Notes under the pieces: model-generated
The model's database searches: none
Told to the model about the DNA's origin: nothing
The model's input: the letters and a program-made list of their open reading frames with translations, nothing else
In this document: piece by piece, positions 33,036 to 38,467 of the stretch
How the letters are laid out: each line of letters starts with the position of its first letter
Numbering within the stretch: position 1 is the stretch's first letter
Source: a virus
DNA length: 64,000 bases
Virus record (IMG/VR): IMGVR_UViG_3300022916_000008
Location: 1 to 64,000 of that record
Strand: one strand, 5' to 3'
Made by a program: the position numbers and the translations under genes

Positions 33036-33413
33036 ATGAAAGTAACAAATGGAGTATCTGAAAGAAGTGAATTAAGATTAGAGGCTATTGAATTAGTCCT
33101 AAAATGCAGACCAGTATTAACAGATAGTGACTTCTTAAGAGCTATGAGTAGGGCTACTGATCTGTATCCAGCAACAATTCCAGTATCAACTGATAAAGAT
33201 GGGATGGAGCCAGAAGAAGAGACTTTAATGCAAAGACTCTTTGGAAATGATGGTGCTAATGGTGTTGAATCAGCATTGGATAGATATGAAACAATTAAGG
33301 AAGTAATGGCATACAATCCTGTCCCTGTTTTATTGCGCTCTTTCTATTGCGATGCATACACTACTACATCACAATCATGGGAATTGTTTAAGGCGGGATT
33401 CGAACTTAAATAA
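33036..33413 (+). CDS. Unknown 125-residue helical early protein
   Basis: This is an acidic, mostly helical protein (LRLEAIELVLKCRPVLTD, then FLRAMSRATDLYPATIP) with a C-terminal ALDRYETIKEVMAYNPVPV segment. No motif is recognised. Its ATG follows an AATTAAAAAAACTGAATT leader. It is followed by 390 bp of structured non-coding RNA before the next gene. Confidence 0.6.
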   Translation: MKVTNGVSERSELRLEAIELVLKCRPVLTDSDFLRAMSRATDLYPATIPVSTDKDGMEPEEETLMQRLFGNDGANGVESALDRYETIKEVMAYNPVPVLLRSFYCDAYTTTSQSWELFKAGFELK

Positions 33414-33424
33414 AGAATTGTAAT

Positions 33425-33580
33425 TGTAGACCGAACGTTATTGCTAACGTTGCTAAAGTAAATAGCAAGGGATTTATAGAGAATACCATAGGTTATGCAG
33501 ACCACTCTTAGTAAGGACATTCACCTAACTCTATTGGAACGAGGACAGCATTAAGTGTTGGTGAACTACTTACGATGATA
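33425..33580 (+). ncRNA. Structured RNA upstream of first tRNA-like gene
   Basis: Several helices can be drawn: TTGCTA/TAGCAA (about 33451-33469) and AACG/CGTT overlapping it, and a strong long hairpin in which GTAAG and TTCACC-T-AAC (about 33512-33534) pair with GTTGGTGAA and CTTAC (about 33558-33574). The last helix has 14 bp over small bulges. No ORF covers it. It is contiguous with the tRNA-like RNA that follows, so the two could be one transcript. Confidence 0.45.
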
Positions 33581-33586
33581 ATGATT

Positions 33587-33783
33587 GAGGATATGGTGAA
33601 ATGGTAGACACGCACTATCGGGTGTGAACGGATTGTCCAGAACTGGAATAAAGAGGTCAGGTAAACAGGTAGACCAGAACAGTCCGCAATTTAAATGTTG
33701 ATGAAAATATTAACGATGGTCCTCTTCGGAGTGCTGACTAACATCAATTATAATTCGTACAGGTTCGAGTCCTGTTATCCTCA
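33587..33783 (+). ncRNA. Giant-arm tRNA-Leu-like RNA 1
   Basis: Acceptor GAGGATA (33587-33593) pairs with TATCCTC (33776-33782), followed by discriminator A. The D arm is tRNA-Leu-type (TG, GTG, loop with GG, CAC). The T arm is ACAGG TTCGAGT CCTGT (33759-33775). Where the anticodon arm should be there is GCACT-ATCG-GGTGT (33612-33625), with a four-base loop. After two bases, ACGGATTGT (33628-33636) pairs base by base with ATAATTCGT (33750-33758), which abuts the T arm. This stem encloses ~113 nt with further hairpins, including CTC-TTCG-GAG (about 33722-33731). In a class II tRNA this stem is the variable arm, so this looks like a tRNA with a giant variable arm and no usable anticodon loop. 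A split anticodon arm with an intron is the alternative. Confidence 0.6.
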
Positions 33784-33804
33784 CTAACCTAAATAAAGAC
33801 TGAT

Positions 33805-35060: not shown

Positions 35061-35232
35061 GGGAATATGGTGGAATGGTAGACACGCTACATTAGTAGTT
35101 GAGCAAATAAGGTAGCTCCTTACAAACAGAGAACTTTGACATATAAAGAATGTACGGTCTTTGTGTTGATGAAAGTATCTGAAGACTATAGACAGTAGTT
35201 GCTCAGTTCAGGTTCGAATCCTGATATTCCTA
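35061..35232 (+). ncRNA. Giant-arm tRNA-Leu-like RNA 2
   Basis: Acceptor GGGAATA (35061-35067) pairs with TATTCCT (35225-35231), discriminator A. The D arm is GTG...CAC with a GG loop. The T arm is TCAGG TTCGAAT CCTGA (35208-35224). At the anticodon-arm position is GCTAC-ATTA-GTAGT (35086-35099) with a four-base loop. TTGAGCAA (35099-35106) pairs with TTGCTCAG (35199-35206), one base before the T arm, enclosing ~92 nt. That region holds TAAGG/CCTTA (35108-35122) and AAAGA/TCTTT hairpins. The layout is the same as in RNA 1, and they share TGTTGATGAAARTAT (here 35164-35178). GTAGT occurs again at 35195-35199, so an intron-like alternative pairing exists. Confidence 0.6.
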
Positions 35233-38408: not shown

Positions 38409-38467
38409 AGATGTGTAGCTCAGTTGGTAGAGCTTTTAGGTCGTGGGTTCAAGTCCCACCACATCTA
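38409..38467 (+). ncRNA. tRNA-like RNA lacking an anticodon arm
   Basis: Acceptor AGATGTG (38409-38415) pairs with CACATCT (38460-38466), then A. D arm GCTC-AGTTGGTA-GAGC (38418-38433) and T arm GTGGG-TTCAAGT-CCCAC (38443-38459) are perfect. Between D and T arms are nine bases (TTTTAGGTC) where a tRNA has ~23, so the anticodon stem-loop is missing. AGGTC looks like a normal variable loop. The RNA would be 59 nt. It sits between two genes on the same strand and could serve as an RNA-processing tag or decoy, or be a deletion relic. Confidence 0.65.

What the first reader, a model, noticed from the sequence alone, without database searches (positions are those of the whole stretch)
33587..33783. 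tRNA-Leu-like RNA with a giant variable-position arm and a four-base anticodon loop
Acceptor, D and T arms are those of tRNA-Leu, but the anticodon-arm position is GCACT-ATCG-GGTGT and a nine-pair stem encloses ~113 nt directly before the T arm. It cannot read codons in this form. It may be a new class of phage tRNA-like RNA, or a tRNA with a tiny intron. GCACT can also pair with AGTGC at about 33730, and the U.G pair closing the tetraloop is reminiscent of a group I P1, though ~130 nt is very small for group I.
Basis: partly seen in the sequence, partly recalled or inferred. Interest (0 to 1): 0.8.

Follow-up and report, generated by a model that had tools for sequence, protein, structure and literature searches.

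The report
Phage tRNA-like RNA that cannot decode
A crAss-like phage carries an RNA gene that keeps the ends and elbow of a transfer RNA but has a folded, knotted RNA domain where the codon-reading arm should be; the same fold recurs in ten other phage records and belongs to a large, apparently undescribed group of non-decoding phage tRNA look-alikes.

Summary
The feature is real. Window 33587-33783 has the acceptor (7/7 pairs), D arm and T arm of a tRNA-Leu, and no usable anticodon arm. ARAGORN (no intron allowed) finds no tRNA in the whole 90.9-kb crAss-like phage. The central ~150 nt are not junk: ten other phage records carry the same RNA. Across the 11 sequences, helices HA, HD, HB and H9 form in 231 of 231 cells, with compensatory changes at 10 pairs; HD forms a pseudoknot. 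Splicing is not supported: no group I match, and joining the flanks restores an anticodon stem no more often than chance (1 of 11, expected 1.25). T1 belongs to a wider group: about 190 distinct aberrant tRNA-likes in the viral loci I held, half with the same acceptor stem (AGTCAGG/CCTGACT), many with an H-type pseudoknot in place of the anticodon arm. I find no Rfam family and no paper describing them. Most likely it is a trans-acting non-coding RNA on a tRNA chassis, matured by host tRNA-processing enzymes, perhaps an uncleavable tRNA decoy. Identity is well supported; function is inferred.

The parts
33587..33593 (+). acceptor stem, 5' strand GAGGATA (with 33776-33782 TATCCTC; 33783 = discriminator A)
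   Evidence: acceptor 7/7 paired in 9 of 11 homologs with 9 different sequences
33594..33611 (+). tRNA-Leu-type D arm TGGTGAAATGGTAGACAC (U8, A14, GG)
   Evidence: for conservation of these positions in the wider group
33612..33625 (+). H1: hairpin in the anticodon-arm position, GCACT-ATCG-GGTGT
   Evidence: weakly conserved in form in homologs (H1 78.6% of cells paired)
33629..33636 (+). HA 5' strand CGGATTGT, pairs with 33679-33686 ACAGTCCG
   Evidence: 100% of cells paired, 4 of 6 pairs with compensatory change
33643..33646 (+). HC 5' strand CTGG, pairs with 33674-33677 CCAG (T1 form is short; 5-6 bp in homologs)
   Evidence: a different sequence in almost every homolog, always pairing. T1's CTGG/CCAG assignment was read from the alignment by eye
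33656..33660 (+). HD 5' strand GTCAG (in the HC loop), pairs with 33734-33738 CTGAC: the pseudoknot
   Evidence: 11/11 paired; variants GUCAG/CUGAC, GUUGG/CCAAC, GUCUA/UAGAC, GUCGG/CCGAC
33679..33686 (+). HA 3' strand ACAGTCCG
33697..33703 (+). HB 5' strand GTTGATG, pairs with 33742-33748 CATCAAT; followed by conserved AAAATATTAAC
   Evidence: 7 pairs in 11/11, outermost pair G-C/C-G/A-U/G-U
33722..33731 (+). H9 hairpin CTC-TTCG-GAG
   Evidence: 3 pairs in 11/11, 2 with compensatory change
33734..33748 (+). HD 3' strand CTGAC, linker TAA, HB 3' strand CATCAAT
33759..33775 (+). T arm ACAGG-TTCGAGT-CCTGT
   Evidence: T stem 5/5 in 10 of 11 homologs
33610..33761 (+). whole non-decoding central domain, match to covariance model R1 (111.8 bits; T1 is one of the sequences in the model)
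35061..35232 (+). T2: second tRNA-Leu-like RNA of the phage with a ~125-nt centre (hairpin GCTAC-ATTA-GTAGT, 7-bp stem TGAGCAA/TTGCTCA just before the T arm)
   Evidence: (Rfam tRNA 36.5 bits); lies in a region 99.8% identical in relative L124
38409..38467 (+). T3: tRNA with acceptor, D and T arms but the whole anticodon arm replaced by TTTT
   Evidence: Rfam tRNA 51.5 bits; armless relatives in L130-L133

Best explanation
T1 is a phage non-coding RNA built on a tRNA chassis. Shown by sequence: the acceptor stem, T arm and tRNA-Leu-like D arm are kept (the acceptor stem by compensatory change across phages). The anticodon arm is replaced by a conserved pseudoknotted domain: H1, then HA-HC, whose loop pairs (HD) with the base of a second arm, HB-H9. 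It cannot decode. Inferred: it is co-transcribed with its early-gene cassette and cut out by host RNase P and RNase Z, which read the acceptor-T half only, and it acts in trans. My leading guess for the action is that it occupies a host tRNA-binding protein, most plausibly a tRNA-cleaving defence nuclease that cannot cut a tRNA without an anticodon loop, with the central domain providing affinity or specificity. It is one member of a large group of such phage RNAs whose centres differ while the chassis stays.
For: Homology and fold: T1-type RNAs in L136, L137, L138, L222, L224, L227, L229, L231, L232, L238. HA, HD, HB and H9 pair in 231/231 cells, 10 pairs have compensatory changes, covariation is 0.448 against 0.136 shuffled (0/500), and slid controls are at most 0.092. 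Chassis kept by selection: acceptor 7/7 with nine different sequences, T stem 5/5 in 10 of 11. Discriminator base is not fixed (A, G, U, C), which argues for processing rather than leucylation. Wider group: 108 of 120 pattern hits have a complementary acceptor; 193 distinct aberrant strings, 101 with acceptor AGTCAGG; 62 AGTCAGG loci in 37 unrelated clusters; A-B-A'-B' pseudoknots more often than in shuffles (63% vs 28-41%); same strand as the downstream ORF 67 to 10. Anticodon-armless T3 and L130-L133 fit a role that needs no anticodon. None of 396 bacterial genomes from the phylum of a Muricauda genome (Bacteroidota) matched the model or the AGTCAGG chassis. Precedents: a YrlA tRNA-like domain has been proposed to inhibit an anticodon nuclease competitively (PMC7790460); phage tRNAs have been proposed to evade anticodon nucleases (PMC10264068).
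Against: No transcript, end mapping or binding data exist for any member. The decoy step has no direct evidence; T1-type centres are conserved while other centres vary, so they may do different things. A near-identical relative lacks T1, so it is dispensable. T1 itself is below Rfam's tRNA threshold. L138 has lost its acceptor and T-stem pairing.
Confidence: 0.55

Rival explanations
1. tRNA punctuation: the tRNA-like fold is only a cleavage signal that lets RNase P and RNase Z cut the early polycistronic mRNA, as in mitochondria. The centre is a filler or a stabilising element.
For: T1, T2 and T3 all end about 18-22 nt before a start codon, and T3 begins 9 nt after a stop codon. T1 sits beside a leader repeat AAAGACTGATATG. 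Anticodon-less T3 is enough for RNase P/Z (general knowledge). Co-orientation with the downstream ORF is 67:10.
Against: It does not explain a deeply conserved pseudoknotted centre, nor arrays of several units with little coding sequence between them (L331, L297, L315).
Confidence: 0.2
2. An intron (group I-like or a new self-splicing type) interrupting a tRNA-Leu; splicing restores a normal tRNA.
For: tRNA-Leu is a classic group I host (general knowledge). H1 often has a U.G pair closing its loop, like P1. The insert is structured.
Against: No Rfam intron match at E<=10. The candidate P7 strand in T1 is not conserved in pairing. No restored anticodon stem (1 of 11 vs 1.25 by chance). Some group members are far too short for an intron (59-84 nt).
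Confidence: 0.08
3. RNA antitoxin or mimic: the pseudoknot neutralises host type III toxins, as ToxI-like RNAs do, and the tRNA chassis only delivers it.
For: H-type pseudoknots are common in the wider group. Several units with different centres occur per phage. Type III antitoxins are pseudoknots and phages evolve ways round them (PMC5449768, PMC5086642, listed).
Against: No sequence link to any antitoxin was tested or found. The T1 core is larger and has a different topology.
Confidence: 0.1
4. A decaying tRNA gene with random inserts.
For: The anticodon arm is lost; L124 lacks the locus; L138 has a damaged chassis.
Against: 231/231 cells paired with compensatory changes at ten pairs; acceptor stems remade nine times; identical architecture in unrelated phages.
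Confidence: 0.03

Closest known systems
Bacterial Y RNAs (YrlA), which carry a tRNA-like domain
   Same: A non-coding RNA with a tRNA-like fold and no decoding role; the tRNA-like domain is not a substrate of an anticodon nuclease and may inhibit it (PMC7790460).
   Different: From general knowledge, in YrlA the tRNA-like module is internal and a Ro-binding stem closes the RNA; here the tRNA is the outer chassis and the novel domain is internal. No Rfam family other than tRNA reached threshold in the loci searched.
Phage T4 stable RNAs C and D (species 1 and 2)
   Same: Phage-encoded small stable RNAs of unknown function next to tRNA genes (PMC9697503). RNA C ends with a perfect T arm CCGGG-TTCGAAT-CCCGG and a 3' strand like an acceptor.
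   Different: I saw no D arm and only a poor acceptor match at the annotated 5' end of RNA C; no homology to the T1 core.
tmRNA
   Same: A tRNA-like domain joined to pseudoknots.
   Different: tmRNA has a reduced D arm and a tag reading frame (general knowledge). Here the D arm is complete, and L231 carries a 10-nt insertion in the only conserved AUG stretch, which breaks the frame. No tmRNA match at threshold.
Group I introns in tRNA-Leu
   Same: Host tRNA type; a P1-like U.G hairpin.
   Different: No group I core, no Rfam match, no restored anticodon stem.
Phage tRNAs with altered anticodon loops (anti-nuclease hypothesis)
   Same: Phage tRNAs thought to resist host tRNases (PMC10264068).
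   Different: Those still decode; T1 cannot.
HDV-like theta ribozymes beside gut-phage tRNAs
   Same: Structured RNA tied to phage tRNA biology (PMC10879173).
   Different: Described as ribozymes involved in tRNA-based recoding; here the structured RNA is inside the tRNA fold. The paper does not use the term tRNA-like.

Membership tests
tRNA | acceptor, D and T arms with elbow residues | tested here: met
tRNA | anticodon arm with a 7-nt loop | tested here: not met
   ARAGORN without introns finds 0 genes in the window and in the rest of the genome; the arm position is a 5-bp hairpin with a 4-nt loop
tRNA | Rfam tRNA score above threshold | tested here: not met
   T1: 13.2 bits partial; homolog L232: 26.9 of 29 bits; T2 and T3 do pass
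group I intron | match to the Rfam group I model | tested here: not met
group I intron | P3/P7 pseudoknotted core with a P7 strand next to P3 | tested here: not met
   the conserved pseudoknot (HD) lies in the HC loop and in HB, not next to HA
group I intron | U.G pair at the 5' splice site | tested here: inconclusive
   present in part of the family; column 6/13 U.G in 5 of 7 countable sequences
group I intron | exons that join to a functional tRNA | tested here: not met
   1 of 11 vs 1.25 expected
tmRNA | tag reading frame | tested here: not met
   frame broken by a 10-nt insertion in L231 and by hairpin length changes
tmRNA | Rfam match | tested here: not met
   only 16.9 bits against 47 for permuted tmRNA in L232, 3'-truncated; none for T1
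bacterial Y RNA | Rfam match / Rsr partner gene | tested here: inconclusive
   no Y RNA match listed; presence of the family in Rfam and an Rsr gene in the phage were not checked
type III antitoxin | binds and inhibits a ToxN-like toxin | not testable with these tools
   needs an experiment
tRNA processing substrate | cut by RNase P and RNase Z | not testable with these tools
   expected from the acceptor-T geometry only

The most novel reading that the evidence does not exclude
Tailed phages commonly carry a hitherto unnamed class of non-coding RNA: a tRNA chassis, matured by the host's tRNA enzymes, with the anticodon arm exchanged for a pseudoknotted payload. T1 represents one conserved payload family. 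The class acts in trans against host tRNA-centred defences or other host machinery.
Probability: 0.5. Interest if true: 0.92.

Novelty: categorically new. Interest (0 to 1): 0.82.

Why it matters
Phage tRNAs are usually read as decoders, and tRNA finders discard or miss genes without an anticodon, so this group has been invisible. If these RNAs are made, they show that phages use the tRNA fold as a general carrier for functional RNA, with several different payloads in one genome. They would give a new set of candidate counter-defence RNAs, may bear on the unexplained T4 RNAs C and D, and offer a naturally evolved tRNA scaffold for RNA engineering. The T1 pseudoknot family has enough covariation to be entered as an RNA family at once.

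Tried and rejected
Group I intron: my first reading of T1 (P3 = HA, P7 = GACCA/UGGUC) looked good on one sequence. It was dropped when the homologs showed that the 5' strand of 'P7' is not conserved in pairing and that HA encloses HC and the HD strand. T1's GGUC/GACC pairing, which I first took for HC, was dropped for CUGG/CCAG after the alignment. The nine-pair stem was dropped because it uses HA's 5' strand. A pairing of the H1 loop with the tail before the T arm exists in several homologs but is not consistent and is not claimed. A short reading frame starting AUGAAAAUA was dropped: frame not kept. Box C/D snoRNA hits in Rfam are chance scores far below threshold. Broad DNA patterns returned mostly tRNA arrays; a 26-base motif in genome contigs gave 70 chance or coding hits. 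blastn against annotated phages found no T1-type relative. The model R1 found no further member in about 1.8 Mb of held loci; the remaining ~65 viral loci were not searched because that call failed. The aberrant-tRNA count includes some strings that span two adjacent units and some that may be ordinary tRNAs missed by ARAGORN, and the loci were chosen by pattern, so it is not a prevalence.

Full report
SETTING. The window is part of a 90,856-bp virus record. Its major capsid protein is 31% identical to that of crAssphage, so this is a crAss-like phage. The left half carries structural genes on the minus strand; the tRNA-like genes lie among the plus-strand genes that follow. ARAGORN without introns finds no tRNA in the window or in the rest of the record. 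Rfam finds two tRNA matches, T2 at 35061-35232 and T3 at 38409-38467, and misses the feature I was given, T1.

OBSERVATION. T1 (33587-33783) has a perfect 7-bp acceptor stem, a tRNA-Leu-type D arm, a 5/5 T arm and a discriminator A. The anticodon-arm position is the hairpin GCACT-ATCG-GGTGT. In 40 Markov copies of the genome the acceptor+D+T criterion is never met; the real genome meets it three times. Energy folding of T1 alone is not better than shuffled sequence, so structure had to be tested by comparison.

HOMOLOGS. A motif shared by T1 and T2 followed by a T arm led to three true relatives in other phage contigs, L136, L137 and L138. A second motif from the 3' half added L222, L224, L227, L229, L231, L232 and L238. 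L230 shares only part. All ten sit inside a tRNA-Leu-like chassis; L232 and L230 come from contigs whose IMG/VR names look like isolate genomes rather than metagenomes (inference from the name).

FOLD. On an alignment of the 11 central domains (A2), four helices pair in every one of 231 cells, with compensatory changes at ten pairs. The covariation score is 0.448 against 0.136 in shuffles (none of 500 as high), and sliding the partners by 1-3 columns drops it to 0.09 or less. HA reads GGAAUG/CAUUCC, GGAUUGA/UCAAUCC, GGAUUGU/ACAGUCC, GGAAAG/CUUUCC and so on. HD reads GUCAG/CUGAC, GUUGG/CCAAC, GUCUA/UAGAC, GUCGG/CCGAC. HB's outer pair is G-C, C-G, A-U or G-U. H9 varies likewise. HC pairs in all but with shifting position, so the fixed-column count understates it (67.7%). 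HD joins the loop of the HA-HC arm to the base of the HB arm: a pseudoknot. Conserved unpaired stretches are ACAAGU, GGUAAAUA and GAUGAAAAUAUUAAC. One caution: the alignment was made by sequence and the helices were found by eye on it, so the shuffle counts are not probabilities; the complete absence of mismatches and the slid controls are the stronger argument.

THE CHASSIS IS UNDER SELECTION TOO. Nine of the 11 have 7/7 acceptor pairs with nine different sequences, one has 6/7, and the T stem is 5/5 in ten. L138 has lost both. The discriminator is A in eight, and G, U and C in three, so leucylation, which needs A73 (general knowledge), is probably not what is being kept.

NOT AN INTRON. Rfam gives no intron family for T1 or L232 at E up to 10. 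The conserved pseudoknot has the wrong topology for group I. If the insert were removed from an anticodon loop, the 3' flank should hold a partner for the 5' anticodon strand: it does in 1 of 11, against 1.25 in shuffles. Members of the wider group as short as 59-84 nt leave no room for an intron.

A WIDER GROUP. A scan for complete acceptor, D and T arms that ARAGORN does not call normal found such genes in many phage loci. In all held viral loci there are 193 distinct aberrant strings, 101 beginning AGTCAGG; this includes some that span two neighbours. The 62 loci with that acceptor fall into 37 clusters without shared DNA of 300 bp or more. Up to seven occur in one locus, in arrays, in the same direction as the next gene 67 times against 10; some phages have them beside many normal tRNAs. 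Their centres differ, but many have two helices interleaved as A-B-A'-B', with A soon after the D arm and B' just before the T arm: 63% against 28-41% in shuffles, with compensatory pairs between related copies (for example L271/L305 and L287/L351). Isolated phages have them unannotated: Bacteroides phage BI-TP1, Brochothrix phage BtpYZU01, Lactobacillus phage Lenus. None of 396 genomes from the phylum of a Muricauda genome matched the model or the AGTCAGG chassis; the model scan used strict filters and has no positive control there, so this is only suggestive of a phage-borne group.

ANATOMY AROUND T1. T1 ends 21 nt before a start codon; T2 and T3 end about 21 and 18 nt before one, and T3 starts 9 nt after a stop codon. 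A relative nearly identical elsewhere (L124, 99% over 11.6 kb) lacks window 33038-33794, that is T1, a 125-aa ORF and 173 nt of non-coding DNA, but keeps T2 and T3. The two borders of the missing stretch carry similar leaders ending AAA(A/G)ACTGA..ATG. T1 thus travels with an accessory cassette.

MECHANISM. Shown: the fold, its conservation, loss of the decoding arm, conservation of the half of tRNA that RNase P and RNase Z recognise. Inferred: it is excised as a stable RNA. Inferred with less confidence: it acts as a tRNA look-alike that a tRNA-cleaving defence nuclease binds but cannot cut. [quoted passage not shown] The main rival is use of the fold as an mRNA cutting signal; it explains position and armless T3 but not the conserved core.

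NOVELTY. The features that define tRNA, group I introns and tmRNA were tested and at least one fails for each. T4 RNA C, a stable RNA of unknown function (PMC9697503), has a perfect T arm near its 3' end and may be a distant analogue. Ten literature searches in an open-access library found no description of such RNAs; papers outside that library were not seen. I therefore rate the group as new in kind, with identity well supported and function open.

Noticed in passing
window 38409-38467; L130 1218-1280; L131 4746-4805; L132 11361-11420; L133 ~1081: tRNA genes whose anticodon arm is replaced by 4-9 nt while acceptor, D and T arms are intact; they recur with different acceptor stems.
   Followed up: partly
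window 33414-33586: 173 nt of non-coding DNA between the 125-aa ORF and T1, part of the cassette missing in L124; folds into several hairpins; no Rfam match; nature unknown.
   Followed up: no
window 33024, 33795, 34422: A repeated leader (AAA)AGACTGA(T)ATG before early genes; it flanks the module that is absent in L124 and may mediate its gain or loss.
   Followed up: partly
L006 7647-7785, 7954-8087, 10136-10266: Three tRNAs of one 175-kb phage carry similar inserts of about 60 nt around the anticodon loop (TTTTTCCC...GTGGCGTTTGGAATGG.TTACTTAG), possibly a small intron-like family.
   Followed up: no
L024 3200-5400: A stretch of about 2 kb in a 353-kb phage contig rich in apparent structured RNAs and tRNA T-arm fragments; one is a tRNA-Leu-like RNA with a near-normal anticodon arm and a ~100-nt insert after it.
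   Followed up: partly
G406 (phage of L356) about 102.6-108.3 kb: About 15-20 low-scoring tRNA-like RNAs within 6 kb beside a few normal tRNAs.
   Followed up: no
L219 1500-1640; L220 1500-1740: Lactobacillus and Brochothrix phage tRNA-Leu-likes with a TGCAAAT instead of TTCRANT T loop and abnormal centres, unannotated in the records.
   Followed up: no
L364 1409-1547 (T4 RNA C): T4's stable RNA C ends in a perfect tRNA T arm (CCGGG-TTCGAAT-CCCGG).
   Followed up: partly
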